Position numbers and translations under genes: made by a program. Below are positions 41,986 to 64,000 of a stretch of 64,000 nucleotides of DNA, piece by piece; position 1 is the stretch's first letter, and every line of letters begins with the position of its first letter. The notes under the pieces are model-generated. The model was not told where the DNA came from, ran no database searches, and saw only the letters and a list, made by a program, of their open reading frames with translations. Origin of the DNA: Chrysoporthe austroafricana (Eukaryota; Ascomycota; Sordariomycetes; Diaporthales; Cryphonectriaceae); contig JYIP02000002.1 of the NCBI GenBank assembly GCA_001051155.2, positions 5,623,315 to 5,687,314 on the forward strand, given 5' to 3'.

Positions 41986-43289
41986 AAAAAACTTGGACTT
42001 AATTTCTTCTATCCTTAAGTAAAAGTGTCTTTAAAGTAAAAGATAGTTTTTTTGTATAAGCAAAAATTTGGCGCTAATAAAAACCGGGAGTAAAGGATCG
42101 TTTTCAGATTGTATAATCTATACTTAACCCGTTTTTCAAAATATTTGCATCGCTTCAATTCGATCTCTTATCTATCTAATATAGTTTATAATATATTTAA
42201 ATATAAGAACTGTATAACGTTTAAGAGGATTGCAATTGCAAACCTTAAGTTTTTATTTAGAAAATTAATAGAGCAAGCCTTATTTTTTGAAATAACCAAT
42301 CAAAACGAAACGAGTTTTATATTAATCTTAATTCGGAACTTTAATTAAATAATTAACAGATTAAAGAACTTTCTATATTACCCTTAACCCGCTTGCATTT
42401 CTAATCAGAAAATAGATTAATAAGATAAATAAGAGAAAAAGCTAAAACTTGCTATCCTTTCAAACCCTTCTTTCCGTATATCGTAAATATCTATTTCGAA
42501 TATAGCTAATCAAATCTATTTATTTGTTTTTTATTTTTAATTATATATTATAATATATAAAGAATGCTATTTCGGCATTCTAGCAAACGAAATTCTAGCG
42601 TATTTAGCTATTTTACGTTATTAAATGCCAAAAAAATAGCGATAATCTATTGCCCGCATTATTCAAAGCTTGCTTAGCATTTATTATATATAATAAGACT
42701 TGCAAGATTTCCGATTTCCAGATCCGTTAAGCAATTCTATCCCGTTTCTTAATAATATCCAAACAAACAGCTTTGCTTGCTAAAAATGCTATTTTATTAG
42801 CTAGCAATATAATAAAATGCGAGATTACTATCGCATTTCGTACGGATGGGTTAATCCTTGTATAAATAGCTGTCTATTTGCTTATAAAGCTATTCTCTTA
42901 ATTTTTTAGCGAATGCAAGTATGCTATTAACGGCTCTTTCCGAGCTAGCAAACTAGCAAATAATTCGAAGTAAAATAGTAAAGCAATATTGCAAAAAATA
43001 AGTATAGCAGCGAGGAATTTCCGAAATAGCAAATTATCGTATCTTTTCGCTAAATATAACAAACGTTTACCGATCAGATAAATAAGCAAATTCAAAAAAA
43101 GGACGAGCAGTTAAAGCTTAATTTATAACTTTGCAAAGTAAGCTAAGCCGCTTATTTGCAAAGTTTCGATTTAATTAGAATTAGGGATTTCGTTATGCCG
43201 ATTCGGGAAGATAAGCCGGTCTTGCAAGCTATATAGGATAGCTTTTAGCGGAATGCTTAGCAAGTACGGGATATAGCGATCGCTATTAT
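41986..43289. other. AT-rich stretch, partly upstream end of the helicase relic
   Basis: Not similar to the gypsy copies. A forward frame at 42109-42348 is open for 79 codons (LYLTRFSKYLHRFNSISYL...) and could be an N-terminal part of the helicase gene, but the match is too weak to claim. 42535-42565 is nearly pure A/T. Confidence 0.35.
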
Positions 43290-44029
43290 TATTGGCTATT
43301 TTGTCTTTTTCGAAATTAACCGGAAAGATAAATATACGAAACCCAAGCAGCCGTTCGATAGCCGGCTCGAGCCTAGCTCGTAAAAGCGGTATTTGAATAT
43401 CTAGCGCTAGATTATTAGCTATATCGTACGAACCTAAGTTATCCTATTTGATTAGCGGCCAGAATATCGATTAATAACCGTATAAAGCCGTTTATATTAA
43501 TAGCTTTTATATTAAGCCGAAAGTATTTCGGTACGCTCGCATACGGATATTCTATTGCAATATAATCGGGCTTATTTGGATTTTACGATTCAGCTTCTCG
43601 ATTATCCGTTTTAAAATATTAAATATTATACCGCTCTCTTAAGCGCTTTGGCTGTTCTTAATATCCGAAACAATAGCGGCTAAGCAATGCTATTCGATTA
43701 TACTAATATTTATTCTGCTATAATTAAAATAGCCCGAATATTCGTTATTTCGTAAAGTTATCTCGAATGCGAAAACGAGATTATAATAGAACGAGCCGAA
43801 ACTAGCATAGCAATTTCCGAATAATAAGCAAAGGAGCAATGCTATAAGCTTTTCGAAATCGTTTAAGCTAAAGTTTATCGGTATATAATAACTATTGGCC
43901 CTAAAATTAAGCTAATGCTATTCGATTGGATTTATAAAGCACGCTTATATAGTTTAAAGATCCGGTATACGTTTGCAATGCAAGGCAAAGTCGAATAGCA
44001 AGGAAATCGGATTTTCTATTATAGCATAT
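43290..44029 (+). pseudogene. N-terminal part of RIPed RecQ/telomere-linked helicase-like gene
   Basis: Forward frames carry a domain that precedes the helicase in fungal telomere-linked RecQ proteins. Recognisable pieces are KDKYTKPKQPFDSRLEP, IISYIVRT, RPEYRLIT, YTALLSALAVLNI and, in the frame leading to the breakpoint, WIYKARLYSLKIRYTFAMQG. The identification rests on my recall of the family pattern and on the continuity with 58631 onward. Stops are TAA/TAG, with Trp and Gln codons the likely sources. The gene is cut at 44029 by element F; the frame at the cut is AGC-ATA-T, completed on the far side. Its start is not identified. Confidence 0.65.
44025..44029. other. target-site duplication of F, left copy
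   Basis: CATAT, repeated at 58626-58630 after the 3' LTR of F. Confidence 0.9.
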
Positions 44030-44459
44030 TATTATAACTTAATAAGAAACCAGGGTTATAATAAAAGAAGGTAGCGCTTAAGCGCCCGATTCCTTCTTGC
44101 TTTAAAGGAACTTCGAGTATTATTAACTCAGAGTTAAAGTTAAATAAGATAAGGATTACTGAATTATTAAGTAATCCAATAAGCCTGGATTACTGGATTA
44201 TTTAATAAGTCGGTAATCCAGAATTAAAGAACCGGATATATAAAGACGGGATATTTACCAAATAAATTACCGTAATTCTTTAATTGTAAATCTAAATATT
44301 AATTGGGCTTTACTATTAATAGCCATATCGGCTTATAAATATTGTAAATATTTATTCAAACAAGTTTCCGGTATTTAAAATTGTATTTAATACCGGCTTT
44401 ACTAGCATAAACCTTTTGACTTTACAATTTATTCTAGGATTGCTATAGCGTTTATAATA
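44030..44459 (+). repeat. 5' LTR of element F
   Basis: 430 bp, begins TATTATAACTTAATAAGAAAC and ends GCTATAGCGTTTATAATA. It differs from 58205-58625 by transitions plus a short deletion in the latter (the AT-ATTTACCA part before AAATAAATTAC). Confidence 0.88.
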
Positions 44460-44505
44460 TTTTTACGATTTTTATTCAAGAATAGTTTAGTATATACCCT
44501 TTAAG

Positions 44506-44510
44506 CAATA
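44506..44510. other. target-site duplication of E, left copy
   Basis: CAATA; the right copy at 52023-52027 is TAATA, a single C-to-T difference. In element B the uninterrupted site reads CAATACCGG (31423 region), confirming the reconstruction. Confidence 0.8.
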
Positions 44511-44950
44511 TATTGTAAATGCTGCAGCAATCCTGGAATATACTATAAGGTCAAAGGGTTTATATTAGCAAGAGCGGTATTAAATATAGCTTTAAGTACG
44601 GAAATACGATTATTAAGTATCGCAATATTTACAAGTTTTATATAACTATTAATAATAGGGTCCAATTGATATTTAAATTGATAACTGAAAAGCTATTACT
44701 ATTTATTTAGTAAATATCTAGCCCTTATATATCCAGCTTTTTAGTAATAATTACTTTGCTTACTTGGTAAGCGTAGCGAGCATGCTTACTTTGCTTACTT
44801 AATAATCCAGGTAATTACTTACAACTTTAACCTTTGCTTATATAAGCGTTTGTATAGTTATACAATTAAGCCCGAAAATCCCGGTATTGAATAGGCCGTT
44901 CTAAGCAGCTTTTAATACTATATTCTGGTTTTATATATTGGTTTATAATA
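44511..44950 (-). repeat. 3' LTR of element E
   Basis: 440 bp, begins TATTGTAAATGCTGCAGC and ends TTGGTTTATAATA. The polypurine tract is the complement of TTATCCCTTATCCTATCGG just inside. Confidence 0.9.
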
Positions 44951-45141
44951 TTATCCCTTATCCTATCGGTTAATATCCTTATCAATTTCTGTAAGCTTCT
45001 TTAGTCTTTCTTATTATTTATCGTGCTTTCCTAATTAGGATATCGAATAGGGTTAAGGATTCCCGTATTCTTAAACCTCGTTCTGTTCGTTTTAAGCGTT
45101 ATAACTGCTTAGTATCCGTTATTCTTCAAAATTCTTTTATT

Positions 45142-45597
45142 ATGCTTTCTTGTTCGTTTTGTAAGGGTTATAATATCCTTTTTTATTACGTTTCGCCTTA
45201 AGATTCCTCGCGTTATTCGGAATATATATGCCTGAATCGGTTGCGTTATAATATACAGGGCGTTTTTTCGTTCTAGCTTGCGCGTATTAGCGATCAGTAT
45301 CGCAAGCTCGAAAAGGAACTCGAAGCTGCTAAAGAGCGCTAGCGGGCGGCGGGTACCGAAATTGCCCGTTTGCGGAAATAGAAGAAACTATAGTTTGAAA
45401 AGATAATGCGGGCGGTTCGTCGTAATTTGTCCAGTCTGGAAGAGTTAGAACGGCTGGAAGCCAAGGAAGCCGAAAAGGAGCGTCGTAAGGCCGAGGCCGA
45501 GCGTTGCATTATGGAATCTTTCGTTCCTGAAAGTCTTTTTCCCGAGAGTTTCGATTTTAAAGCTGCCTTATAGCAGTTCGGTTCCGAAATTAATTAG
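45142..45597 (+). pseudogene. accessory ORF of E
   Basis: The ATG at 45142 gives MLSCSFCKGYNILFYYVSP, then SSRYSEYICLNRLRYN. After scattered stops a strong coiled coil follows: RISDQYRKLEKELEAAKE, then SSLEELERLEAKEAEKERRK, then FVPESLFPESFDFKAAL. It is 152 codons to the TAG at 45595, with all stops explainable by Gln or Trp codons hit by transitions and no net frameshift. In copy F the equivalent of this last TAG is TGG and the protein continues, so the ancestral C-terminus lay further on. Confidence 0.68.
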
Positions 45598-45894
45598 TCC
45601 GTTGCTATTTCAGAAGTTGGGCTCGAAAATACGGCCGGTTCTTCTAGTATTAACTATCCTTTTGGTTAATTAATAAGTTTTTCTGATTAGTCGTTCTTTT
45701 ATTCTAATATCGAGCGCTAATTAGTAATAGCATCTTATTATTTGCGGTTTTGCTTGACTAGTTGCGGATTTCTCTTTACTAATACAGGTTTGCTTATATT
45801 AATACTGTAACGGGCTTCTTAATTAAGCTGTTTTACTAAGAGAATCTTTATATCCTAATAGCTACTTTTTCCCAATAAGCCTAAAATGCTTATT

Positions 45895-48800
45895 TCGCAT
45901 TAGCTAAGTTCTTAATTAATTCTTAGCTGTTTTCGCTTGAATAGTATCCTTTCTATTTAATCAGATATTTCTTATAATTTATTGGTTTTCGATATTTAAA
46001 AATTCGTTCCATTTCGTATTCTGGTTTATTATTTTCTGCCTATACTGTATTATCTATTTCGGCTGTTTTATATGCAAGTTCAAGAAGCGAAATGTGAAAA
46101 ACTGAGTAGATTTTCATTCTGTAAGGCAATGCAAGTTTAAAATTAATATTTGAGATTTTCTTCAGAATTTTGAATAGTCCGAATTTCTTGTAATCTAGAG
46201 AGTAGGAAAGTCTGGTTGTTTTAATATATTCTTTTCGTTATACGAAATAGATTTTATTTCCTTCTTGCAGAATTAATCTTTCAATTCTTTTGGAATTAAC
46301 GTATCGGGTTATTCTTTTTTATACAAATCTTAATTCTTCTTGCAGTTCTTTTTATACTTTCTTGATTTTCTTAATTCGTTTTTCTATTGCTTCTATATTT
46401 ATTCTTAATAACTCGTCATAATAAGCTATCGAGTTATAGCCGTATAATGCGTAAAATAATAATTTTTTCGTTATACTTATATTTGCGCTATTATATGCGA
46501 ATTATATTAAAGGCAATAAGTTAACCCAATTATCCTATTCGTAATTTATATAATGCTATAAGTATTATTTAATAATTTAATTTATTCGTTTTATTTATTT
46601 GTCCGTTTATAAATAGAATGCTATAAATATCTTTTATTGCATTCCGAATAATTTCGTAAGTAAAGTCTAAAAGTTTAATACGAATTTCCTATTTCTATCA
46701 GAAATAATTTCTTTAAGCATGCCGTAATTGGTTATAACTATTTTCAAGAATATATATACAAAATCTTTTGCTATACTGCTTTTCTTATACGGAAAGAAAT
46801 AAGCATACTTGCTTAATTTGCAAATTATTATTAAAATGCTATCGTATTGCACTTTAATTAAAGGTTTTTGTAAGAAAAGTAGCTTAGTAATAAAGTCTTA
46901 GCTAATAGATTGCTAAATTATTTCTGGAATAGAAAATAATTAGAGCAGTTTATAAGGCTTATAATATTTAATCTTATTCTTTTTGCAGCTATTGCATTTT
47001 CGTAAGATATTTTCAATCCTTTTTCTGAAATTTAATGGATTCTAATATCTCTTAATTCTTTTATATATAGCTCTAATTCTTTAATAGCCGTATACGGGTA
47101 TATTGTATATATTCCTAATATATTTATCTTATTCTTCTATCGTTATATTTTCCGGTTTCTTTTTATTGCTAGATATTCTAATAATCGTATTAAGCTTTCT
47201 GGCTTTATTTATAAAATTGCTATTTTTATTTTATCGAAAGATATTTTATAATTCTTTTAGCTTTATATTTTAATAATCTGATCGTTTGCTAAATGCATTT
47301 GCTTTGCCGTTTTCCAATCTTTTGCAATAAATAATTTTTAAATCGAATTGTAAAAGGAATTCCGCCTATTTGATTTATCGTTTATTCAGGACTTTCGTTA
47401 TTATAAATGTTATTAAGTTTTTGTAATTGGAATGCATTATAATCTAATATTTCGCCCCGATTAAGTAATGCTACTATTTTTCGAATGCTTTTACAATTAT
47501 TATTAGTTCCTTATCTGGGATACCGTAATTGAATTCTAGGCCGCTTAGTTTTTTCGAGAAATTGCTTACGATTTTAAAGCGTCCTTAGTTATCTTATTAA
47601 CCGAGCTGTTTTCCTAATGCATAGTCTAATATATCGGTTTCGATTTCAAATGGTTTGTTTGGGTTTATTTCGTAAAATATAAGTTCTGATATTATTTGTT
47701 TTTTGATTTTGTCAAATGCTTTTTGCGTTTCTTATATTCATTCGAATCTTTGGTTTTTTTTTCGTAAGATTTATAAGAGAGCGTACGATTCGGCTATAGT
47801 TTCGAATGAATTATCGGTAAAAGTTGGCATAGCTAAAGAAGGTTTTAATTTCTTTTATCTTTTCTAATATAAGCTATTCTTTTATTGCTTGGACTTTATC
47901 TTTTTGCATGCTAATTTTATTAAGTTTTATCGTATAGCCAAAATAATTAATTTTTTATTAATAGAAATAATATTTGCTTAATTTAATAAAAAACTTATTA
48001 TTTTGTAAAGTCCGAAATACTTGCTATATATATTATTTATAGGATTTGAAATCTTTTGAATAAATAAGGATATTATCGAAATAAACGATAATAGTAATAT
48101 TTAAGTATTTGCGGAAAATATTATTAATTATTTTTTGGAAAAATGCAAGCGCATTAGTTAGCTTAAAGAGTAAAATTACGTATTCGAAATATCCGTAACG
48201 AGTCCTGAATGCTATTTTCCAAATATTATTTTCTTTAATTCGAATATAGTAATATCTTTCTTTGAAATCGAGTATAGTAAACCAATTTGCTCCGATTAAT
48301 TGATCTTGCATTTCCCTTATTAGAAATAAGGGATAACGGTTTTTTATTATAATATCGTTAAATTGCTTATAATCTATATAAAGTCGGAATTTGCTATTTT
48401 TCTTTAATACGAATAGGATTGGATATCTTACCGGTAATTGTAATTTCTGTATATAACTTCTTTTCAAATTCTCGTTAATATATTCTCTAAATGCTTCGAA
48501 TTTCGCTTAATCGAATTTGTAAATAAGATAATTCTTGGGTTTTATTCTTTCTTTCAATAAGATCTTATAGTTAAAAGGGCCGTATTCTAGTAAACCGGTA
48601 TTCAATTTTCTTTGCTATAATTTCTTGAATTCTTAGTATTCTTGTAATACGTTTTTAAGTTCTAATAGCGATCCTTTTTCGTTATTTGCGATTTGGAAGA
48701 ATAAGAGGTACCGTTAAGCGTATTTTCTTTCTATTGCTTCCTTTCTTTATCTATATATCCTGGTTTCTAATAGCTTTGAGTATTTGCTATTTATAAAGCC

Positions 48801-51560
48801 AAATTTCTTTTTGTAATCTTTTTATATTTATTATGCTGGAAGCTGAATCTCTTTATAGTTTTATAGTTTATATAGTTTCGTAATGCTCTATACCGGATTA
48901 GCTTTTTATTAATCGCTAGTTGCTTGAATTTTCGGTTTATTTCTAACTTGTATTTATAAGTTCGAAATATTCGTAACCTTTCCCTATCGTTTGGCAAGTG
49001 CTTCTGCTTTAAAAGTATATCTAAGCCTATTTAAACGCATGCTTTTGCTGCTATTTTCAATAATTAAAACCTTCCTTTTTTCATTAATTGCAACCCTTTT
49101 AATAAGTACGGCTAGTTCTTATAAAATCTGGCTAATAATCCAATCGATCTAAGGGTTATGCTTTTTAAGCTAGAATATTCTTAAGATTAACTTATGCTAT
49201 GCCGTATTTGTAATATCGAAAGTAGTTTTCGTTATAAGGCTTTAAATCAAGATAAATAAGTAATTAATTTCTATATCGATTATGCTAAAATTATATATAA
49301 CCGCTTTTCTTTTTATAGTATTAAGTTTATAAAGATCCTTCTTTTGCATTCAAAGAATCTATTCCCTATTAATAATTTCTAGCAAAATAAAATTTCTTTA
49401 TACGTTATTATTTAATAATGCGCCGTAATGTTACCCGTTAATATATGCATCCAAAATAATATATTCTTCCTTATTATTCGTAATAGTATATAAGGACCTT
49501 ATAATTCTGATCGGCTGCTATCCTTTTACAAGCGATCCTTTCCTTTTAAGTCGTTCTATGCTTATCTCGCTACTTGCCTTGCTAGTTTTCTTGCTTAGCT
49601 TTGAGCATACTGTTTTGCCTTTTCAGCTTTTTGCAATTAGTATTACTCTTTAGCTTTATCTTGCATATAGATAGAATATACCGATATATAGCATTATCCT
49701 TATACTATTTTTCCTTAAATATACTTCTATAAATAATCGTTAAGTAATTCGATATAAGCGTTGCTATATTCGATATATAAAACTTTTCTATATCTCCTTT
49801 AGGATTCCATAATAAATTAGACCAATTGGTTTTATTCCTTAATTGGGAACCAATTGTATTTAATCTTCTCGCTAAAATATATTTAGCAATTGTAATATAT
49901 GCAATATGTCCAGGCAAGTTTATAATAACGAAAGTATAAGTAACTAATTCTTTCGTTTTCTTAAGGTTTGCATCCGCTATTCTGAAACGGGATGCTTTGA
50001 AAGAGTTCCTATAATATAAGCCCGTAAATAAAGTGCTTAATCTTTATATGCTTGGTTATCCAGTCGCTATGCTTTTGTCGTAGCTATTTTAGAATGCTAT
50101 ATTCCTCTAATTCTTTTTCAAATATAAGGGTTAGCAAGTTGTCTGGCTGTCGGTTTAGTAATGCTATTTCTTCTATTGCAGCATTAAATATTAATATTGT
50201 CGTATTTAAAGTACTGAATTCCTTTTTTATTATTATTTCTTATTGTTTGTCGAAATATATTTCTAGAGGAAATCGTCTTAAATCCTCTTCTCTAGCAATT
50301 AGTAAGTTGCTTAAGCAATTTGAATTGCTATCATTTATAGCCGTATCGTAAAGAGGGCTTTTTCTTCTTATAACGAGTTGCTTTTATCCTTTAAGCTTTT
50401 ATAAGAATTATCTTAAGCCTTTTTTCGCCAAGAAATGCAATAGGCAATAATCTTAATAGCAGGCCGTCCAGCTTATGCTGCCGTAATTAAGGTCCGCTAC
50501 TTATTTTAATAGGATATTATTGCTTAGCTAATTGGGTTCCTATTACTGGGCGATATTAACTTATTTTTCCGAAACTAGTTTCCATTCTTGCTTCTTTTTT
50601 TCTTAATAGCAATTGCAAGCAATATAGCCTTTCCTGCTACAATTGTAATAAGTAATTCCCTTACGCTATTCTCGCATAAAAGCGTCTAGTTCTATAAGTT
50701 TAGCATATATCGTACCCAAATAAGCCGTATTATTTCGGTTGCTATATTGGAACTTGCGCTTTTTAAAATTGGGTTAATACCGAAAGGTACTATTATAATT
50801 CTTTTGTTATTATTATTTTCGTTCGTAAAGTCGGTTATCGATACGGACGGCTTTATTAATAAACTCGCTAAATTCTTCGGGTCGGTTTTCCTTATAAAGT
50901 TCGTCCTTAATTTCTTCTTTAAATCTTATATAATAAGCGTTTATAAAGGGTTCGTTTTCGTAATTAAAATAAGCAATAATTTGTCTGAATTTGGCCGTAT
51001 AGTCTGCTGCTAATCCTGTTTGCCGAAATGCTTTCAATTGCTATATTATAATATATCGCTTGTCCGGATTTCCGAAAGTTTTAGTAAGGGCTTTTTTGAA
51101 ATTGGAATAGTACTGGAAAATACGTTTAGTATCTTCGGAACGGAATACGTTATTATTATCCAAATAATTGCGAAAAGTGAGTTCTTATTACTGGAATGCT
51201 ATTCTTTCGAATCGGCTTCTTGCGAAGTCGATCTTATCGTAAATAATCCTGAATTAAGTACTATAATGCTTAAAATAAGCCTTGAATTGAGTTAAGAAAG
51301 CTTAAAAGTCTTTACGAATGCTTTTATAAGGCTTAAGCTTATCAAGCTTGAAAGTTTTAGCTTATTAAAGGGTATCAAAGCAAAAAGTCTCGTTTTTAAT
51401 TTCTTCAAGCTATTAATATAAAGCTATATTTTATTCCTGGAATTATTCGTTAATAAGGATAACCGGGTTTCTTTCCTAAAAGGCTTAATTGCTAAAAGAA
51501 AATAAAGTATAAAGCGCTATCGTATTTCTAATATTGCTTAAAAGGTATATACTAAACCGT
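45895..51560 (-). pseudogene. gag-pol of element E
   Basis: Reverse strand. The gag part at 51037-50813 is open for 74 codons (TAKFRQIIAYFNYENEP and KAVRIDNRLYERK). The zinc knuckle near 50606-50655 reads YNCSRKGYIACNC. At the protease site the Asp-Ser-Gly is now Asn-Asn-Asn (49406-49421). The RT at 48467-48033 is open for 144 codons with FVLKKNSKFRLYIDYKQFND and YFDNILIYSKD (YFDN near 48072-48083). The integrase core is at 46852-46667, and the chromodomain at about 46030-45895 (YEMERIFKYRKPINYKKYLI, then TAG). Domain order is as in A. Confidence 0.87.
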
Positions 51561-51582
51561 TCTTGAATAAGAATTATTAAAA

Positions 51583-52022
51583 TATTATAAACGCTATAGC
51601 AATTCTGGAATATATTATAAAATTAAAGGATTTATACTAGCAAGAGCGGTATTAAATATAGCTTTAAGTACGGAAATACGATTATTAAATATCGCAATGT
51701 TTACAAATCTTATATAATTATTAATAATAAAGTCCAATTAATACTTAAATTGATAACTGAAAAGCTATTATTATTTATTTAATAAATGTCTAGCTTTTAT
51801 ATATCCAGCTTTTCAGTAATAATTACTTTGCTTATTTAATAAGCATAGCGAGCATGCTTATTTTGCTTATTTAGTAATCCAAGTAATTATTTATAACCTT
51901 AACCCTTGCTTATATAAGCGTTTGTATAGTTGTATAGTTAAGCTTGAAAATCCCGGTATCGAATGGGTTATTCTGGGCAGCTTTTAGTGCTATACCCTGG
52001 TTTTGCATATTAGTTTATAATA
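51583..52022 (-). repeat. 5' LTR of element E
   Basis: 440 bp, begins TATTATAAACGCTATAGC and ends TTAGTTTATAATA. Same length as its partner, with only transitions noticed between them. Confidence 0.9.
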
Positions 52023-52027
52023 TAATA

Positions 52028-55000
52028 CTAGAAATACGATAGCGCCTTAAACCTTATTTTCTTTTAGCAATTAAGCCTTTCAGGAAGAAATCCCGATTAT
52101 TTTTATTAACGAATAATTCTAGCAATAGAATGTAGCTTTTTATTAATAGCTTGAAAAAGTTAAGAATGAAGTTATCCGCTTTAATGCTTTTTAGCAAGCT
52201 AAGGCTTTTAAGTTTGATAAGCCTGGGCTTTATAAAAGTACTCGAAGAGATTTCCAGGCCTTTCTGATATAGCTTAAAGCCTATTTCAAGCATTACGAAA
52301 CCCAATTTAGAATAACTTATAATAAAATCGATTTCGTAAAAAGTTATTTGGAAAAGACAGCCTTTCAGTAATAAGAGCTAACTTTTCGCAATTATTTGGA
52401 TAATAGTAAAGATTTCCGTTCTAAAGATACTAAGCGCGTTTTTCAGCGCTATGCCAATTTCGAATTAGTTCTTATAAAGACTTTCGGAAATCCAGACGAA
52501 CGATATATTGCAATACGGCAGCTAGAAACATTACGGTAAACCGGCTCGGCCGCAAACTATACGGCCAAATTCCGATAAATTATCGCTTATCTAGATTATA
52601 AAGACGAACTTTTTATAAACGCTTATTACGCGGGACTTAAGGAAGAAATTAAGGACGAACTTTATAAAAAAGACCGGCTTGAAAAATTCAATAAATTCAT
52701 TAATAAGGCAGTCCGTATCGATAACCGACTTTACGAATAGCGCTAGTAATAATAAAGGAATTATAATAGCGCCCCGAAATACTAACTTAATTCAGGGAAG
52801 CGGAAATTCTAACAAAAAACCCGGAATAATACGGCCTATTCAGATACAATATATATTAAACTTATAAAATTAAATATTCTCGTACGGGAATAATGCAAAG
52901 GCATTACTTGCTATAATTGCAGCAAGAAAGGCTATATCGTATGCAATTGCTATTAGAAAAAGAAGAAGCGAAACTGGAAACCAATTCTAGAAAAATAAGT
53001 TAATATTGCTTAATAACAAAAACCCAATTAATTAAATAATAATACTCTACCGGAATAAGTAGCGAACCTTAACTATAGCAATATAAGCTGGATAGCTTGC
53101 TATTAAGATTATTGCTTATTGCATTTTTCGGTAAAAGAAAGTTCGGGATAATTTTTATGCAAGCTTAAAGAATATAAGCAATTCGCTATAAGAAGAAAAG
53201 GCTTTATTTATAATGCGGTTATAAATAGCAGCGATTCTAATTATTCGAGCAACTCTTTTAATATTAAAGAAAAAGATTTAGGAAAGTTCCTTTTAAGCTA
53301 TTATTTCGAATGACAATAGAATATAATAGTAGAAAAAGAATTCGGTATTTAAAAAAAAAGAATACTTATACTCAATGTTATATTTGAAAAAACAACTTTA
53401 TAGGATAGATAGCCGGATAATTTACTAATCTTTATGCAAGAAAAGAAACTTGATATAAAAATAAAAAAAACGATTTCCTAATATATAAAACAGAAATAAC
53501 CAGAACGAAATAACTAAATATCCAAATATACGAAAGTCGAATACTTTATTTATAGGCTTATATTATAGGAACTCTTCCAAAATATCCCGTTTCAGAATAG
53601 CAAATACAAGCCTTAAGAAAATAGAAGGATTAGTTACTTATACTTTCGTTATTACAAGCTTGCTTAAATATATTATATATACTATAACTATTAGATATAT
53701 TTTAACGAGAAAATTAAATATAATTGGTTTCCGATTAGAGAATAGGATTAATTGATTTAACTTATTATAGAATTTCGAGAAAAATATAGGGAAATCTTAT
53801 ATATTAAGAATAATAACGCTTATATCGGATTACTTAATAATTATCCGTAAAAATGCATTTAAAGAAAAACGATATAAGAATAATATTATATTATAGCATA
53901 TTCCATCCATATGCAAGATAAGGCTAGAAAATAGCATTAATTGCAAAAGATTAAGAAGCTAAAGCAATATGCTTAAAGCTAAGCAAGAAAATTAGCAAAG
54001 CAAATAACGAAATAAGCTCAGAATATTTTAAAAGGAAAAGATCGCTTATAACAGGATAGCAGCCGATTAGAATTATAAGGTCCTTATGCGCAATTATGAA
54101 AGAAAACGAAAAATATATTATATTAAACGTATATATTAACGGGCGGCGATATAGCGCATTTTTGGATAGCAGCGCATAAAGAAATTTCATTTTGCTAGAA
54201 ATCGTTAATAGAGAACGAATCCTTTAAACGCAAAAGAAAGATCTTTATAGACTTAATATTATAGAAAGAAAAGCGATTATATATAACTTTAATATAATCG
54301 ATACGGAAATTAATTACTTACTTATTTCGATTTAAGGCCTTATAATAAATATTACTTTTAATATTATAAATATAATATAATATAAGTTAATTTTAAAAAT
54401 ACTTTAGCTTAAAAAGCATAACTTTCGAATCGATTGGACTATTAGCCAAATTTTATAGGAATAAGCCGTACTTACTAAAAAGGTTGCAATTAATAGAAAA
54501 GGGAAAGTTTTAATTACTAAAAATAATATTAGGAATATGCGTTCAAACAAGCTCAAATATACTTTTAAAGCAAAAAGGTTTGTTAAAATAAAAGGAAGGG
54601 TTACGAATACTTCGAATTTACAAGCATAGATTGAAAATAAATTAGAAATTCAAGCGATTAGCAATTAATAGAAAGCTAATCTAGCGCGGAACGTTATAAA
54701 GCTATATAAGTTATGGAATTATAAAGAGATATAGCTTTTAAGATAGCAAATACAGAAAGATTACAGGCAGAAATTCGGATTAAGAAACGATAAATACCCG
54801 AAACCCTTAAAGGTTAAATTCCGAAAATAATAATAAGAAGCAAGCAAAGCAAAATACGCTTAATAATACTTTTTATTCTTTTAAATCTTAGAAAATAAAG
54901 AAAGACTATTACTAAAATTCAAAAATATATTAAAGGAATATTACGAATTCAAAAAACTATAATAAGAGAAATTCGATACCGGTTTATTAGAATACGGCCC

Positions 55001-57433
55001 TTTTAATTATAAAATTTTACCAAAAAAAGGAATAAAACTATAGAATTACTTTATTTACAAGCTCGACTAAGTAAAGCTCGAAGCATTTAAGGAATATATT
55101 GACGAAAACTTAAAGAGAAATTATATACGAAAATTACGTTTACTTGCAAGATATTCAATTCTATTCGTATTAAAGAAGAACGGCAAATTACGATTTTATA
55201 TAGATTACCGATAGCTTAACGATATTACGATTAAAAACCGCTATCCTTTATCTTTAATAAGAAAAATGCGAAATCGGTTAATCGGAATAAACTGGTTTAT
55301 TACGTTCGATTTCAAAGAAGAATACTATTATATCCGGATTAAGGAAAACAATATTTGGAAAATAGTATTTAGGACTCGTTACGGATATTTCGAATATATA
55401 ATCCTATTTTTCGGACTAATTAATGCATTTGCATTTTTCTAAGAAATGATTAACGATATTTTCCGCGAATACTTGAATATTATTATTATTATTTATTTTG
55501 ACAATATTCTTATTTATTTAAAAAACTTTGAATTATATAGATAGTATATATAATAAGTATTCCAGATTTTGCAAGATAATAAATTCTTAATCGAACCAAA
55601 TAAGTATTATTTCTATTAATAGAAAATCGATTATTTCGGTTATATAATAGAACCAAGCAAGATTAGTATATAGAAAGATAAAATTTAAGCAGTAAAAGAA
55701 TAACTTATATTAAGAAAAATTAAAGAAATCAGAATATTTCTCGGCTATATTAACTTTTACCGATAGTTTATACGAAACTATAATAAAATTGCATGCCCCT
55801 TTATATATCTTACGAAAAAAAACCGAAAGTTCGAATAAATATAAAAAGCATAAGAAATATTTGACGAAATTAAGAAACGAATTATATTAGAACTTATACT
55901 TTGCGAAGCAAACTTAAATAAGCCATTTGAAATTGAAACCGATATATCGGATTATGCATTCGGGAAATAATTCGGTTAACGGGATAATTAAAAATGCTTC
56001 AGGATTATAAATAACTTTTCAAAAAAATTAAACGGCTTAAAACTTAATTACGGCATCCCAAATAAAGAATTAATAGCAATCGTAAAAGCATTTAAAAAAT
56101 AATAGCATTATTTAATTGGAATTAAATATTAGATTATAATACATTCCGATTATAAGAACTTAATAACGTTTATAATAACAAAAGTCTTAAATTAATAATA
56201 AGTTAAATAAGCAGAATTCTTCTTATAATTCGATTTGAAAATTATTTATTGCAAAAGATTAGAAAATAGCAAAGCAAATGCATTTAGCAAACGATTAGAT
56301 TATTAGAATATAAAACTTAAGGAATTCCAAAATATTTTCGGATAAAAAAAAAATAGCAATTTTGTAAATAAAGCTAAGGAATTTAATACGATTATCAGAA
56401 TCTCTAATAACGGAAAAAACTAGAAAATATAATAACGGAAAAACAAAACGAATATATTAAATACGCATATAATGCATTCGCATACGGCTATTAGGGAATT
56501 AGAGCTATATATAAAAGAATTAAGAGATATTAAAACTTTCTAAAATTGAAAAGAAAGATCGAAATAATCTTACGAAAATGTAATAGCTATAAAAAGAATA
56601 AAATCGAATATTATAAGCTTTATAAACTATTCCAATTATTCTTTATTCCAGAAACGGTTTAGCAATCCATTAGTTAAGATTTTATTATTAAGCTATTATT
56701 TTTACGAAAACTTTTAATTAAAATATAATACAATAATATTTTAATAGTAATTTGCAAACTAAATAAATATGCTTATTTTATCCTATATAAGGAAAGCAAT
56801 ATAGCAAAAGATCTCGTATATATATTCTTGAAAACGGTCGTAATTAATTACGGTATGCTTAAAGAAATTATTTCCGATAAAGATAAGAAATTTATATTTA
56901 ATTTCTAAACTTTACTTATAAAATTATTCGGAATATAACAAAAAATATCTATAATATTCCATTTATAAATAGATAAATAAACGGAATGAATAAACCAGAT
57001 TATTAAATAATACTTATAGTATTATATAAATTATAAATAAAATAATTAAGTCGATTTGCTATTATTGGCATAATTCGCATATAATAGCGCAAATATAAAT
57101 ATAATAAAGAAATTACTATTTTATATATTTTATAGCTATAACCCGATAGCTTATTATAACGAATTATTAAAAGCAAATGCAAAAGCAATAGAGAAACGAA
57201 TCTGAAAAATCAAAAGAACCCAAAAAGAATTTCAGAAAAAACTGAAATTTGTATAAGAAAGAATAATGCGATTTGCTAACTCTAAAAGGATTAAAGGACC
57301 AATCCTATAAGAGAAGGATAAAGTCTATTTTATTCGATAAAAAGAATATATTAGAACGATAAAACCTTTTTACTTATTAGATTATAAAAAACTTAATCTA
57401 TTCAAAATTCTAAGAAGAATTTCAGATATTACT
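52028..57433 (+). pseudogene. gag-pol of element F
   Basis: Gag resumes right after the duplication of E. The zinc knuckle at 52905-52955 reads CYNCSKKGYIVCNC, with only the His lost to Tyr. The protease is LLDSS with Asp at 54165-54167 (Gly to Ser). RT is at about 55090-55540, with YFDN at 55494-55505. RNase H is at about 55900-56300, and the integrase at about 56400-57430 includes KLNKYAYFILYKESN near 56755. The chromodomain is missing: the integrase tail at 57434 jumps to sequence that in B lies after the chromodomain, a deletion of roughly 200 bp. Confidence 0.83.
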
Positions 57434-57569
57434 TAAGCGAAAATAGCTAAAAACCAGTTAATAACTTAAATAATATATAATAAGCGCTTAAGAAATATTA
57501 GAAAAAGCAATTAACCCGCTAGCCGAAAAAAAAGCTAAAAAGACCCGGAATAGTTTCGGACCCCGCAGT

Positions 57570-58019
57570 CAAATCAATATTAGCCCAGTTAATATCAAGA
57601 CCAAATTATTGCAAGACTATATTCAAATCGAAGCTTTTAGAAAAAAAACTTTCGGGAATTAGGATATCCGAAATACGATATTCAGCTTTAGCTTTACAAC
57701 GCTTTTCTTTAGCCTTTTCCGCTTCCAACCGCTCTAATTCCTTAATATTATTAATGTTCCGACAGATAGCTCGCATTATCTTTTTATACTATATGCATTT
57801 CTGCTAATACAAGCGAAAAACTTTCTTTTCCGCAACCTTTAATTCCTTTTCCAATTTCTGGTATTAATAAGCTATTTTGCAAAGCTTATCCGGAATAACT
57901 CCCAAAACGTTATATCGGGAATAGTTAAGCTGCATATATTCCGAATAACAAAAAGAGTTTCGTTCCGAAACTTAATAGCTAAAGATATTATAACTTTCGC
58001 AAAATAAGCAAGAAGGCAT
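57570..58019 (-). pseudogene. accessory ORF of F
   Basis: Reverse strand from the ATG at 58019: MPSCLFCESYNIFSY, then a TAA, then VSERNSFCYSEYMQLNYSR; coiled coil YQKLEKELKVAEKKVFRLY, NIKELERLEAEKAKEKRCKA; then FSKSFDLNIVLQ and GLDINWANIDLTAGSETI. Here the codon after GLDIN is TGG, showing that the stop at this point in C, D and E is a Trp codon turned to TAG. A shorter frame on the same strand (58087-57872) is a shadow. Confidence 0.63.
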
Positions 58020-58204
58020 TTATATAGCATACTGTAAAACCGCTTCCAAAAGAGAATTATAACGCTATATTTTAGCCGAACGAGCAAAACGAATTTTCTA
58101 TACTTTGCTTAATATCCCGATTAAGAAAGAAAAATTATAAAATAATTATAGATAAGGATTTTTACGGAAAATTATCAGACGATAATTGATAGGAAAAAGG
58201 ATAA

Positions 58205-58625
58205 TATTATAACTTAATAAGAAACTAGGGTTATAATAAGGAGAAGTAGCGCTTAAGCGCTTAATCCTTTCTTGCTTTAAAGGAATTTCGAATATTATTA
58301 ATTCAGAATTAGAGTTAGATAAGATAAAGATTACTGAATTATTAAGTAATCTAATAAGCCTGGATTATTAGATTATTTAATAAGTCGATAATCCAGAATT
58401 AAAGAACCGGATATATAAGGATGGGAAATAAATTACTGTAATTCTTTAATCGTAAATTTAAGTATTAATTAAGCCTTATTATTAATAGTTATATCGGCTT
58501 ATAAATATTGTAAATATTTGTTTAAATAAGTTTCCGGTATTTAAAGTTATACTTAATACCGGTTTTGCTAATATAAACCCTTTAACTTTATAGTTTATTC
58601 TAGAATTGCTATAGCGTTTATAATA
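58205..58625 (+). repeat. 3' LTR of element F
   Basis: 421 bp, begins TATTATAACTTAATAAGAAAC directly after the purine tract GATAGGAAAAAGGATAA (58188-58204), and ends GCTATAGCGTTTATAATA. Confidence 0.88.
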
Positions 58626-58630
58626 CATAT
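58626..58630. other. target-site duplication of F, right copy
   Basis: CATAT, identical to 44025-44029. Confidence 0.9.
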
Positions 58631-61600
58631 AAGTTTCGTTTATTCAGATTTCCGATATAGCTTATAGTTTATTAAGCTTAGCGTAATAAAGCTTTGCCGA
58701 AATGTTCGAAATTCCGGACTTAAATATTTTGCTGTTTATTAATTAGCTTTCGATCGAAAATGATTATTATAAAAACTAGATTAGCTATTCGTTCTTTACC
58801 GATTATCGAAATTAATAGCTTCTTAATTGCTAAGAATGGCTATTATACCGTATTCTTTCTTATACGGAATTATATACCGGTTGGTTCGAGCAAAGCTTAT
58901 AACAAATCCGGATTCGTGCTTTCCGCTAATTCCGCTGCTAAGCAAAGAAATTCCGTAAGCAAATTCTAGTTTTGATATACTTTACCGGAAGGTAGCCGGT
59001 ACGGACTTCTGAAATCTTAACTTTCCGATTAAAGAATTCGGCATACGGAAGCATCCGTAATCTCTTTATTTATAGCAAGCTTATTTATTTTGTAACTTTA
59101 TATTATAAAAGGTACCGGGCAATAATATAGCTTAAGATTATTTACCGTTATTTGCTATACGAAGTCGGGGCTTTTGTTATTTAGTATTTCTGGCTCGCCT
59201 TTCTTTTTTGGCAGCAAATCGAAAGGCTTTTAAGCGCTAGCCAGGCGCGAAATCCGTTTTTCTAAGCCGAATCTGTTTTAATATCGGCATAACAGGAAGA
59301 AAGGCCGGATTCGGAATAAGCGGTTCGAAATGCGCAGCTATAGCTTTCGGATCAAATATAGCGCCTTTTCCAGCAATATACGCTATAGCTATTAAGTTCC
59401 AAAATTACTATTAGCGCTTAGCAGCGTATAGCGATTGCTATTGCCCGCTAATATTAAGGAAAAAGCTATAATAGCCGCAAGCAAGAACAATAGGAAAATA
59501 ACGAAAACGATTTAATTAATAACGAAAAAATAAATTATATCTTGGACTTATAAGCCGGGCATAGTATTATAACAGCTTATATAATATACGGAAAAGAGCT
59601 ATAGTAAAAATAGTTCGAATTCGCTTTCCGAAAAGACTAATTTCGAATAGCTAATACTTAATAGTATTGCTTTTTCGGCTTCCGAAGCTCTTATAGCTAT
59701 CAAATTCTTTCTAAGCGGAAAAAAGAGATTTTCGAAAGAGAATTCGAATAAAGCCGGCTATAACGCTTCCGGCAGCTTTATAAAACCGACTTTCCCGGCC
59801 AGTTATAGCAGATAATAAGGGAATAAGCGCATTTTCGAAACGGCTAAAAAGCTATACTTAAAGCAATTATACGAAACGAAATGCTTATCTTGCAAATTAC
59901 TAGGACTAATAATAGAAAAGCTCTTTCTTTCTTACTTTTAGCTTATTGTTTGCTTTAAAGCGTTTCAATTATTATTCTTCCAATTATTGCATTATAAAGC
60001 AATTTAATCCGAAAATGCTAAGTATACCAAATCGATACGCATATCTAAGCCGGGTTTACAATTAACCGTATTGCAATTATTATTTTTATTATGCTTGAAT
60101 TTACTATTATGCAGCAGTTTCGCATTTTTATTAACTGGTTCCGGATTCGCAAGCAATTAAATCGGGTAATTATAGATAAATGCTATATTTCTTTCGATAT
60201 TAAAAATAGCTTTCGGCCTAAAGTATAAAAGCTTGAAACAATTATTATAGCTTATAATATATAGCATATTTTTTTAATAGCTATGCTGCTTTCTTGAAAT
60301 AAACTTTCGTTTTTCCGTACGATATAGATTTCTCGCCTTATTATTTTCCGGATATTTATAATTCGAAAGAATATTAGCTATCGAATATATAAAGTTATAT
60401 TCGATTAAATCGAAATTTCTATTCGCAAAGCAATCGCGTTAATCTTAACGTATTAAAACGAAAGCAAAACGATTATTTATAGCAGAACTATCCAGCGCGT
60501 CGAAAGGTTTAAAGCCGCTCTGGGTTGCAAGATATATTATAGCAAAATAATTAATACGCTTAGCAAGCTTGCTATTATCCAGAAATAGATAGAAAATAAG
60601 CATATTATTATAATTATTAATGCATTAAGAATAGATTTCGATATTCTTACGATTTATATAATTATTTATACCGAATTGCTAAAGCAATTACGAGATTATG
60701 CTTAGGAAAACGGATAAGCAAGCCGGGATGGAAATAATAATACTGCTTTTCTTTTCTGGGATAGCCGGGCTGCCAAGAATATTAATAGCGAAATCAGCCA
60801 GTTTTTGCAAGAAAAAAAATGCCGCTATATCGTCCTCGACCAAATTTTCGATAAGCATATAATCCGGATGCAATATACGAATAGCGAAATAGCTTATAAC
60901 TTATACGAAATAAAGATTTTGCAGCAAAGCAAGTACGAAACAGATTAGAATATTAGCCGGGAGCTTTTTAACCAAATATAACGGAAAACCAATTAAACGC
61001 AAAAAGAAATAGCTAGAAATATTTAGGAAAAGGCTTAGATAGCCAATACTTTTATCCGGCAGCTCGAAATATAAGCCGGGGCTTGTATTTTTTATAAAAG
61101 CAGAAAACGAAAAGGCATAGCCGCCTTATATACGAAAGCAGATTGCCTATTTTAGCAAGATTCGGTTTGGTACGAAATCGAAAGGAAGCAAAAGGAATTG
61201 CAGGAAATCGTTTTTGCAAAAAAAGGCCTGGCGCTATATTCGGGATATTTTTAGTACGGGATTCCGTAAGCGTTTTGCAAATCGTAAGCAATTATGCTAT
61301 CGGATTAGAAATCGTATTGCCGCAAAGCTAGCAGGATATGCCAGTATCCTGGTTTAATCGGGTTTATTTTTACAAGCTTCTAAGCGCTTTATACTTATAA
61401 GATTTCGGCATTCGTTTTATTATTTTTTGAGCAAAACAGGCTATTAAGCTAAAAGCAAAGTGCTATTTATGCGTAGTTAAGCTAGCATTATAAATGACTT
61501 GATATTGAAACGAATAATTTATATTGAGCTTTTTTCGAAATAACGGAAGCGGTTAATTATATGCTAGCAGAAAGAAAATAAAGTTTAATTCGGCAGCTTA

Positions 61601-61640
61601 TAAAACGGAAAGAAAGGAAAGGAAAAAAAAAAAAAATCGG
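58631..61640 (+). pseudogene. helicase and C-terminal part of RIPed RecQ/telomere-linked helicase-like gene
   Basis: One forward frame runs from 58633 (GTT) to at least 60732 without net shift. It contains a recombinase-like block (TGR, stop, PVRTSEI at 58987-59016; IRNLFIYSKLIYFVTLYYKR). Then come RecQ motifs: motif 0 HFRNG-stop-K (59830-59850, Gln lost); motif I T-R-T-N-N-R-K at 59899-59919, a TGTGSGK with each Gly changed by G-to-A; motif II IIDKCY at 60169-60186 for IIDECH; TIIYSRTIQRVERF; and motif VI YA-stop-ENG-stop-ASRDG at 60697-60732 for YAQE-GRAGRDG. A zinc-like C-terminal region (KCRYIVLDQIFDKHIIRM) and a further domain (IANTFIRQLEI, LALYSGYF) follow to about 61.6 kb. It unwound DNA 3'-5' by family; function here is abolished. 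Confidence 0.8.
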
Positions 61641-64000
61641 AAGGAAAAAATAAATCGATTTCTATAGCAAGCCAAATCCAGGAAAGCCTAATTAGAAATA
61701 TAATATAGCGAATTTCTATAAAAAACTATTAAATCCAAAATAAATAGCAAAAATGCAGCGCAAGCTTGCTTGCTAACTTTCGGCTTCCCAATCTATTAAG
61801 CCTGCTATATTTACTATTGCTTTAGTATTTTCCTTCCGGCTTTATAGCTAGTTCCCTAATATTCAAACGGGCTTTTTGCCCTTTCGTATATCCGCTTTTT
61901 ATTCCCGTATTTCAGCTTTCTATTCTTGCTATAAAGCATTGCTTATTCTTCCCGCTAGCTTATTTAATACTGCTTGCTATCTTTCGAAATCGGGTTCTTA
62001 TATCGATATTGGCTAGCGAAACGGGTCTAAAGCTAATATAGAGAATAGCGAGCAAAAAACTCGTTCTAATGCTAACCTTTAAATTTCGGTCGAAGCTCTA
62101 TTTGCTATCGATATATCGCTACCCGTACTTACCGACCTCGATAATAGCGTATTGCCGAAACTTATTTGGGATATCGATTTCGCTATTGCTCGCTAAGCAA
62201 TATTTCTGTTATTTAAAGCTTGTAGCAGCCTTTTAAGCTATTTCGATAAATTAAGCTCGGCAATTAAAGTATCGATATTAAGTATAGTCTCGAAATCTAT
62301 TAGAAATTCTCGTAACGAATTCCGTACGGAATTTCGCGGAAAAATGCATACCGAGCTTGCAAGCAATATACTGTAAACGGGCAAAGGCTAATTAGATATC
62401 TTAAGTTCGGTAAAGGCTTTGGCAATAAGCGTAAGGAAAGGAAAACCCGAAAGCAAGATAGCTATATAGCTTTTTCTCGAAATTTCGACTTATATTATAC
62501 TTTTCTTAAAACTAAAGTATTTTTCGATATTTATTATTGCTCTTAGCGATTACGGGCAAAGCTTCCGGTTTCGAATATTAGGGTTAGCAAAAGGATTTGC
62601 TATTCTGCTATAGCAAGCTAAGCTAGTATAAGCGAAAACGGGTTACGGATCCAATCGGCTATTTATAAACTAAATTCTATAATTTCCGGATTTATTAGCC
62701 GTATACTTATCGGGTCGACCCAAGCATTTTTCGCCCGATCTGAAAGCTATATATTAGTTAAGCTTTTCTTGCTATTGCGCTACTAATCGTCCAGAATTTT
62801 CGTAAAGAATTCGTTCGCTTGCAAAATTCTTCCGGGCATACCGATCTTAAAGCGAATAGCAATTAGAAACGCTTTTTCGATATAGCGCTAGAGCAGCAGC
62901 TTGCTATTCGCATTTATATATAAGACAAATCGCTATTCGTCCGTAAATTCCTTGCCGCGCTATTTTTCGAGTTTCCGGAAAAAAAATGCAAGTTATTCGC
63001 TATATATAAGCCGCAACTCTATTCGTTTTCCTAGAAAAAAATAAATATATAGCAATAGTTTAAGGCTTTATTAGCCGGCAGCCTATTTATTGTTATTAAA
63101 TGCTATTCGATAAGCTTTATAATAATCTGCTAAAGCTTATCCTTACTAGTTAATAAAGAATTGAATATTTGGATAGTATAGCAATAGTAATCGTATATAG
63201 CTATAAATTAATAATACGAGCGAATGCAAAAGAAAATTGCTTAGCGCATTTTAAGCCCGTATTTATTTCGAAAATATAAAATAGAATGGCTTTCAAAATT
63301 GAAAACTCAATTCGGTATCTAGATCTAGCAAGTTAAATTTATAAGCTGCTATTAAATTAAGCCTATTAAAGCTATATCCGTAATCTATTCGCGCTATAAG
63401 ATAAAAGCTTCGATATCGTAAAGCGCAAATACGATATAGATTTAATAAATCCTATTAAATATAGCTTAATCGAAAAGCTAATCTGAATTATTGCGTAATT
63501 GCAAATAAAAAATAATATTGAGAAAGAAATAGCGGAATATAGCAATTGCATTAGCTAATAAAGAGTTAAGTAATTCCAAATCGAAATAATTTGAATAATT
63601 TGCTAATATTTTCGGATTAATCGGAAAATAATTATTACTAACCGAATTTATAATAATCCGGTTCAAATTAAAGGCTATATAGAGATATTATCGAAATAAA
63701 GCTATATATTCTGCTAGGTTAAATATTTGGGAAACTAATCGGACTTTCTTAGCTAATATTATAAAGCGCTATTATTTTGCTTTATCTAATATCTTATAAA
63801 TTTTATTTGCTATTGCTTGAAAAGGGTTAATATATTAAGGAAAGGCTATATTAAAACGAATAAAGCGAAAAATCTTTAAATTATTAAGCAACTTTGCTCG
63901 GGCTTTTTCGAAAAATAGTATTAAAATATCCGCAAGGTTAGCAAACTTCTTTCTTTTGCTATTCGATATTTTAAGTTCCGATTGCTAATAATTATAATAC
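61641..64000. other. unidentified degraded coding-like stretch
   Basis: AT-rich but with fewer stops than the gypsy blocks. Forward pieces such as LPKLIWDIDFAIAR (62150 region), RNSRNEFRTEFRGKMHTEL (62305-62360), FGKGFGNKRKERKTRKQDSY (about 62410-62465) and LIIRANAKENCLAHFKPVFI (63210 region) look like former protein. No family recognised, no LTR, and no similarity to the gypsy copies noticed. It may be another RIPed gene or a different transposon. Confidence 0.4.

What the first reader, a model, noticed from the sequence alone, without database searches (positions are those of the whole stretch)
43290..61640. One RIP-killed RecQ/telomere-linked-helicase-like gene split by a 14.6-kb nested transposon
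Left (43290-44029) and right (58631-61640) pieces belong to one gene. The target duplication CATAT flanks element F. Deleting 44030-58630 gives AGC-ATA-TAA-GTT-TCG, with GTT at 58633 in the same frame as the helicase motifs. Motifs 0, I, II and VI are all present but altered by G-to-A or C-to-T only. Telomere-linked RecQ genes sit near chromosome ends in many fungi, so this suggests a subtelomere that has been silenced by RIP.
Basis: partly seen in the sequence, partly recalled or inferred. Interest (0 to 1): 0.88.

Follow-up and report, generated by a model that had tools for sequence, protein, structure and literature searches.

The report
Dead telomere helicase gene, retrotransposon-split
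A gene predicted to encode a RecQ-type DNA helicase is cut in two by a 14.6-kb nested retrotransposon, and it and every related copy found in this likely fungal genome, lying near what are likely chromosome ends, carry many stop codons, likely put there by the genome defence called RIP; it is a well-marked example of a known kind of chromosome-end gene.

Summary
The finding is right in nearly every point. The two pieces are halves of one gene: for 20 of 27 genome matches to the left half, the right half follows in frame after exactly one codon; in the window that gap is 14,601 bases larger. CATAT flanks the insert; uninterrupted sister copies carry the site once. The insert is two LTR retrotransposons in opposite orientation, one nested in the other, Ty3/gypsy type. 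The gene is RecQ-type and reaches further left than stated, to an OrsD domain at 42523. Of 30 family matches, 28 face the nearer contig end and the other two face a telomere; at three contig ends telomere repeats directly join the unit's 3' flank. All matches have stops. Sixteen copies differ almost only by transitions (57 to 1; transversions 0.25%), mostly at CpA and CpT: near-identical copies likely mutated by RIP. The unit recurs with a period of about 10.8 kb. Much the same thing (helicase plus DUF3505/OrsD, retrotransposon-bearing subfamily, one orientation at all chromosome ends) is in print for Colletotrichum higginsianum. It is a new member of a known kind, of modest interest.

The parts
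42523..42831 (+). OrsD (DUF3505) domain, N-terminal part of the same gene, degraded
   Evidence: Pfam PF12013, E=2.8e-5, 25.0 bits (cut-off 26.6) in frame 42001 with stops as X; same frame as 43291; sister copy on C1 scores 42.1 bits
43291..44028 (+). Left piece of the helicase gene, middle region, 246 codons, 16 stops
44025..44029 (+). Target-site duplication CATAT, left copy
44030..44455 (+). LTR of element A, left copy (about 86% identical to the right copy)
   Evidence: self-comparison and LTR alignment
44511..52022 (-). Element B: second LTR retrotransposon, nested in A in opposite orientation; LTRs about 44507-44954 and 51579-52026; flanks CAATA/TAATA; limits approximate
   Evidence: Pfam on the minus strand: RVT_1 7.1e-17, RT_RNaseH_2 2.9e-18, RT_RNaseH 8.4e-16, SH3_Tf2-1 1.1e-8
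52023..58204 (+). Internal body of element A; with B's body it forms an inverted repeat (46141-57434, 76%)
58205..58625 (+). LTR of element A, right copy
58626..58630 (+). Target-site duplication CATAT, right copy
58633..61638 (+). Right piece of the helicase gene, 1002 codons, 66 stops
59827..60816 (+). RecQ helicase core (residues 399-728 of the right piece)
   Evidence: TIGR01389 E=4.9e-5; motif columns counted over 16 copies
61639..63850 (+). 3' flank of the repeated unit; telomere repeats join it at the point equal to 62053 on C18 and to 63850 on C16
   Evidence: 61700-63900 has 24 other matches in the genome, one of them only 75 bases

Best explanation
The sequence holds one gene, predicted to encode a RecQ-type helicase and one of about 30 matches near contig ends, that carries 66 stop codons in its right half alone, likely from repeat-induced point mutation (RIP), and that is split by a 14.6-kb pair of nested LTR retrotransposons which likely inserted into it. 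The gene belongs to a unit (OrsD domain, middle region, RecQ core, about 5.7 kb of 3' flank) that reads toward the chromosome end and recurs after about 10.8 kb (insert subtracted). Likely course, inferred: the unit spread among chromosome ends by recombination while the copies were nearly identical; RIP then mutated every copy; gypsy-type elements entered the array, here first element A at CATAT and then element B inside A. Shown: anatomy, copy number, orientation, mutational bias, insertion footprint. Inferred: RIP as the cause, recombination as the way of spread, the order of events, kinship with named telomere-linked helicases, and that the intact protein acted at chromosome ends.
For: Junction: 20 of 27 left-piece matches continue into the right piece one codon on; window gap 14,604. 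Single site in the 12 uninterrupted copies printed. RecQ family: TIGR00614 6.8e-33 on the C1 sister copy, window piece 4.9e-5, profile of 17 copies to RECQ5 and BLM chains E=7e-7 to 4e-5, Pfam OrsD, DEAD and Helicase_C all over cut-off on the C1 copy. Family: 33 genome matches, all with stops; 30 of them one family, 66-78% amino-acid identity to the window's copy. Orientation: 28 of 30 toward the nearer contig end; the other 2 lie on C13, a 28-kb contig, and face its telomere. Telomere repeats abut the 3' flank on C16 and C18 and a point further downstream on C13. RIP-like bias: transitions/transversions 57 over 120 pairs, transversions 0.25%; mean mutated fraction CpA 0.43, CpT 0.36, CpG 0.12, CpC 0.07, counted where the neighbour is invariant and at least two copies keep the C; 55 of 66 window stops are sense codons in at least one sister copy, 52 of these by transitions only. 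Tandem unit: L009 3349-3952 repeats window 41965-42567, and C1 shares the same inter-unit junction; C1 holds three gene copies 11-18 kb apart.
Against: 11 of the 66 window stops are stops in all 16 copies, so these copies cannot show that the frame was ever open there, and 3 further stops differ from a sister codon by more than transitions. RIP was read from bias, not observed; a simple index is not diagnostic, (CpA+TpG)/(ApC+GpT) being 1.12 in the right piece. Pfam found nothing in the window's two pieces as given. On C12 only the first 600 bases of a following unit were seen. C12's right end bears no telomere repeat. No intact relative from a named species could be compared. Four of the 20 fetched family loci were left out of the 16-row count (L023, L029, L030, L031), and 10 further matches were not fetched. 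The genome search scores only the best candidates, so an open copy could have been missed.
Confidence: 0.92

Rival explanations
1. The helicase unit is itself an autonomous telomere-seeking transposon rather than a subtelomeric segment spread by recombination; the protein would carry its own DNA-joining activity.
For: Near-identity of copies before mutation and one orientation fit a burst of targeted insertion; by eye the middle region has an R...K...RH...GHS...Y order recalled from tyrosine recombinases; the divergent second family against IntA gave E=0.013, the lowest of all pairs tried, but a probability of only 3%.
Against: Profile comparison of the middle region with 81 XerD sequences gave E=0.14, no better than the reversed control at 0.10; FimB 0.078 (reversed 0.58), Cre 0.47, lambda Int 0.53, IntA 0.75, all with probability under 1%. 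A motif scan did not single out the sites, but it also failed on Cre and lambda Int, so it had little power. Single-sequence structure prediction was useless, pLDDT 42.6. No telomere repeats lie at the unit junctions looked at.
Confidence: 0.07
2. The C-to-T bias is not RIP but ordinary methylated-cytosine decay over long time.
For: Transition-only divergence alone would fit.
Against: CpG, the usual decay site, is little hit (0.12) while CpA and CpT are (0.43, 0.36); transversions are only 0.25%, so there was little time for slow decay.
Confidence: 0.04
3. Two separate genes lie by chance on both sides of the insert.
For: Before the genome search nothing excluded it.
Against: Sister copies carry both halves joined in frame.
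Confidence: 0.01

Closest known systems
Telomere-associated repeats DHX_G198, DHX-chim_G203, DTX-chim_G199 of Colletotrichum higginsianum (PMC5576322; passages read)
   Same: Long units (11.3-18.5 kb) at all 24 subtelomeres, one orientation, helicase plus DUF3505 (OrsD) domains; subfamily G203 arose by a retrotransposon insertion (chromodomain LTR-gypsy in the discussion; the figure legend says non-LTR)
   Different: There single per end, transcribed, shared blocks 88-100% identical; here the unit recurs in tandem and every match has stops
Subtelomeric RecQ family of Mycosphaerella graminicola (PMC4522978; passages and section 9 read)
   Same: Low-GC (34.7%) RecQ gene tightly linked to telomeres, 13 copies (7 full, 6 truncated), in a genome with CpA-type RIP bias
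   Different: A large open frame and a 3,480-bp coding sequence are reported; here about 4.5 kb of frame, OrsD included, and no open copy found
Telomere-linked helicases of Fusarium oxysporum, TLHcr (PMC12857005; passages read)
   Same: Many helicase-bearing regions at chromosome ends
   Different: Frames of about 3.5 kb reported, often next to telomeric non-LTR elements (FoTeRs)
UTASa/UTASb of Ustilago maydis (PMC10532341; passages read)
   Same: RecQ-like unit next to the telomere; an OrsD domain in the linked UTASb
   Different: The two parts are described as separate repeats; some members are upregulated in telomerase-negative mutants
Subtelomeric RecQ genes of Agaricus bisporus var. burnettii (PMC7473861; passages read)
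   Same: Up to 19 subtelomeric RecQ models, full and truncated
   Different: Not RIP-degraded; var. bisporus lacks them without reported telomere defects
Y' elements of Saccharomyces cerevisiae (named in PMC4522978; details recalled)
   Same: Helicase-bearing subtelomeric unit that may stand in tandem
   Different: Telomeric repeats may lie between tandem Y' units (recalled); none were found at the junctions looked at here

Membership tests
RecQ-type superfamily 2 helicase | Sequence match of the helicase core to RecQ models | tested here: met
   Window 4.9e-5 to TIGR01389; sister copy 6.8e-33 to TIGR00614; both below those models' curated cut-offs, as degraded and distant members would be
RecQ-type superfamily 2 helicase | Motifs I, II, V, VI with their key residues | tested here: inconclusive
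   Of 16 copies: motif I Lys 16; motif II Asp 10, Glu 11, fourth position Tyr 16; motif VI first Arg 7, second Arg 14; the canonical letters are recalled
Telomere-linked helicase (TLH) family | Located next to telomeres, multicopy | tested here: met
   30 matches, median 13.3 kb and at most 85.5 kb from a contig end; present at 4 of the 6 contig ends with TTAGGG arrays
Telomere-linked helicase (TLH) family | Sequence relation to a named TLH | not testable with these tools
   Protein database unavailable; assigned by domain make-up and place only
RIP-mutated repeat | Transition bias in a preferred dinucleotide context in repeated DNA | tested here: met
   ts/tv 57; CpA 0.43, CpT 0.36, CpG 0.12, CpC 0.07
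RIP-mutated repeat | RIP machinery and sexual cycle in the host | not tested
   no search for RIP genes was made
Ty3/gypsy LTR retrotransposon | Direct LTRs, short target duplication, Pol domains | tested here: met
   LTRs, CATAT; RVT_1, RNase H and SH3_Tf2-1 over cut-off in element B, gag and integrase zinc domain below it; element A assigned only by its likeness to B
Tyrosine recombinase domain in the middle region | Profile similarity to known tyrosine recombinases | tested here: not met
   E=0.14 against XerD, reversed control 0.10; low power because all rows are degraded

The most novel reading that the evidence does not exclude
This genome is a natural null mutant for telomere-linked helicases: a near-identical, tandem helicase family spread over its chromosome ends and was then driven to extinction by RIP in every copy, while the ends went on being capped by TTAGGG repeats, showing that the helicase is a dispensable, selfish passenger of chromosome ends and not a maintenance factor.
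Probability: 0.35. Interest if true: 0.5.

Novelty: new member of a known kind. Interest (0 to 1): 0.33.

Why it matters
Subtelomeric RecQ genes are described from many fungi and their role is unsettled (passages of PMC7473861 and PMC4522978). A genome in which no open copy was found (0 of 33 matches) while six contig ends carry TTAGGG arrays is a useful natural experiment. It is not the first hint of dispensability: Agaricus bisporus var. bisporus lacks such genes, which is why the interest of the novel case was lowered from 0.55 to 0.5. The very low transversion divergence also gives a clean picture of what RIP does to a multicopy chromosome-end unit.

Tried and rejected
Tyrosine-recombinase reading of the middle region: tested by profile comparison, motif scan and structure prediction, no support. 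Relatives in viral contigs: none confirmed. Relatives in the protein database: not obtainable. A second gene in the 3' flank: no Pfam match at E 0.1 in six frames of window 61641-64000 or of the following 3.4 kb. A repeat name recalled from memory was not found in the paper library. (protein search, none of 7988 candidates scored) used the wrong strand and says nothing; (alignment) had the wrong strand for 11 of its 20 rows and was replaced. In one search the first of three proteins was out of frame; the other two, in frame, gave no NCBIfam match. The two literature searches for a link between these helicases and tyrosine recombinases listed no paper on it; only listings and, for PMC10799480, passages were seen.
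Full report
Observation. The window is C12:5623315-5687314 of a 48.15-Mb, 22-contig genome; C12 is 5,717,739 bases long. The left piece (frame 43291-44028) and the right piece (frame 58633-61638) carry 16 and 66 stops. Searching the genome with each piece, stops as X, gave 27 and 33 matches. In 20 of the 27 the right piece follows the left one in frame after exactly one codon; in the window the gap is 14,604 bases, that is 14,601 plus the same codon. Of 12 uninterrupted copies printed, 9 show CATAC or CATAT and 3 TATAC once at the site where the window has CATAT on both sides of the insert. The two halves are therefore one gene.

The gene. An OrsD domain lies upstream in the same frame (42523-42831, E=2.8e-5, just under its cut-off), so the gene starts further left than 43290. 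On the sister copy with the fewest stops among near-full-length ones (C1, minus strand) OrsD, DEAD and Helicase_C all pass their Pfam cut-offs and TIGR00614 RecQ gives E=6.8e-33. The window's own right piece gives E=4.9e-5 to RecQ TIGR01389. A profile of 17 of the 20 fetched loci (L029-L031 left out) finds RECQ5 and BLM structures at E=7e-7 to 4e-5. Scanned one by one, 10 of these 17 match Helicase_C, 6 OrsD and 2 DEAD at E 0.1.

The insert. LTR copies of element A end the insert (44030-44455, 58205-58625). Inside A sits element B (about 44511-52022) of a related family in the opposite orientation, flanked by CAATA/TAATA, so that the two bodies form an inverted repeat over 46141-57434 at 76% identity. 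B's minus strand carries reverse transcriptase, RNase H and Tf2-1 SH3 domains over their cut-offs: Ty3/gypsy type.

Place in the genome. Of 30 family matches (some are pieces of one gene), 28 are transcribed toward the nearer contig end and the other two lie on the 28-kb contig C13 and face its telomere. Median distance to a contig end is 13.3 kb, maximum 85.5 kb. TTAGGG arrays were found at six contig ends; four of these carry the family (C5, C13, C16, C18), C15 carries the divergent family, and C17 gave no match. On C16 and C18 the telomere array directly joins the unit's 3' flank, at points equal to window 63850 and 62053; on C13 it joins at a point equal to C12:5690499, downstream of the window. 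The flank 61700-63900 has 24 other matches in the genome, one of only 75 bases. Downstream of the window the unit's 5' end begins again (L009 3349-3952 equals window 41965-42567), which gives a period of about 10.8 kb once the 14.6-kb insert is subtracted; C1 has the same inter-unit junction and three gene copies 11-18 kb apart. No telomere repeats lie at these junctions.

Mutation. Sixteen right-piece copies (window plus 15; L023, L029, L030 and L031 left out) differ by 49,808 transitions and 871 transversions over 120 pairs; transversions are 0.25%. Mean mutated fraction at C by 3' neighbour, in columns with an invariant neighbour and at least two copies keeping the C: CpA 0.434 (202 columns), CpT 0.355 (343), CpG 0.115 (100), CpC 0.069 (30). 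Of the window's 66 stops, 55 are sense codons in at least one sister copy, 52 by transitions only; 11 are stops in all 16 copies. Every one of the 33 matches has stops inside, at least 8, and 26 in the best near-full-length copy. This is what RIP does; RIP itself is inferred, and that the organism is a fungus is inferred from the RIP-like bias, OrsD and TTAGGG.

Compared with print. C. higginsianum has telomere-associated repeats of 11.3-18.5 kb with helicase and DUF3505 domains at all 24 subtelomeres, in one orientation, one subfamily with a retrotransposon insertion (PMC5576322, passages; its discussion says LTR-gypsy, its figure legend non-LTR). M. graminicola has 13 low-GC subtelomeric RecQ copies (PMC4522978, passages and one section). 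An Epichloe RecQ pseudogene near an alkaloid gene fragment was taken as a hint of telomere linkage (PMC3585121, passages). The present case adds a tandem unit, exact telomere joints, a measured pre-mutation identity and a family without an open copy found in this assembly, but it is the same kind of thing.

Rejected lead. The middle region suggested a tyrosine recombinase by eye; profile comparison gave no support and the other tests had little power.

Noticed in passing
C22:2152145, C18:4986078, C15:2449, C14:9602, C2:1347627 and C2:1338128 (L043-L048): A second, divergent family (about 24% identity to the main one): six long copies, five of them 73-76% identical to the sixth, all with stops. 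The five on contigs of known length are on the minus strand and so point away from the right-hand contig end (C22, C18, C2 twice near it; C15 has its telomere there), opposite to the main family. A weak DEAD match in one of four scanned; no NCBIfam match in the two scanned in frame.
   Followed up: partly
C19:4811704 and 4822233 (L139, L029): A different element lies within about 10 bases of the site hit in the window gene; a sequence like its end also borders a C6 copy and occurs near C12's right end. Possible insertion hotspot or chance.
   Followed up: partly
window 18500 to 64000: GC falls from about 50% to 21-40% near 18.5 kb and stays low to the end of the window; the last 1.5 kb of the contig, read separately, look AT-rich too.
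   Followed up: no
genome-wide, L032-L035: 23 DUF3435 matches (Starship captain-type, recalled), 16 with stops and 7 without.
   Followed up: no
C12 right end, L010 8228-9759: The end of the contig matches C6:16941-18471 in an orientation opposite with respect to the contig ends, and breaks off in an AT-rich simple repeat.
   Followed up: no
L037 (C1:10660-13000): A stretch equal to window 42009-42464 is present twice, with a short run of N in this locus; assembly gap or duplication.
   Followed up: no
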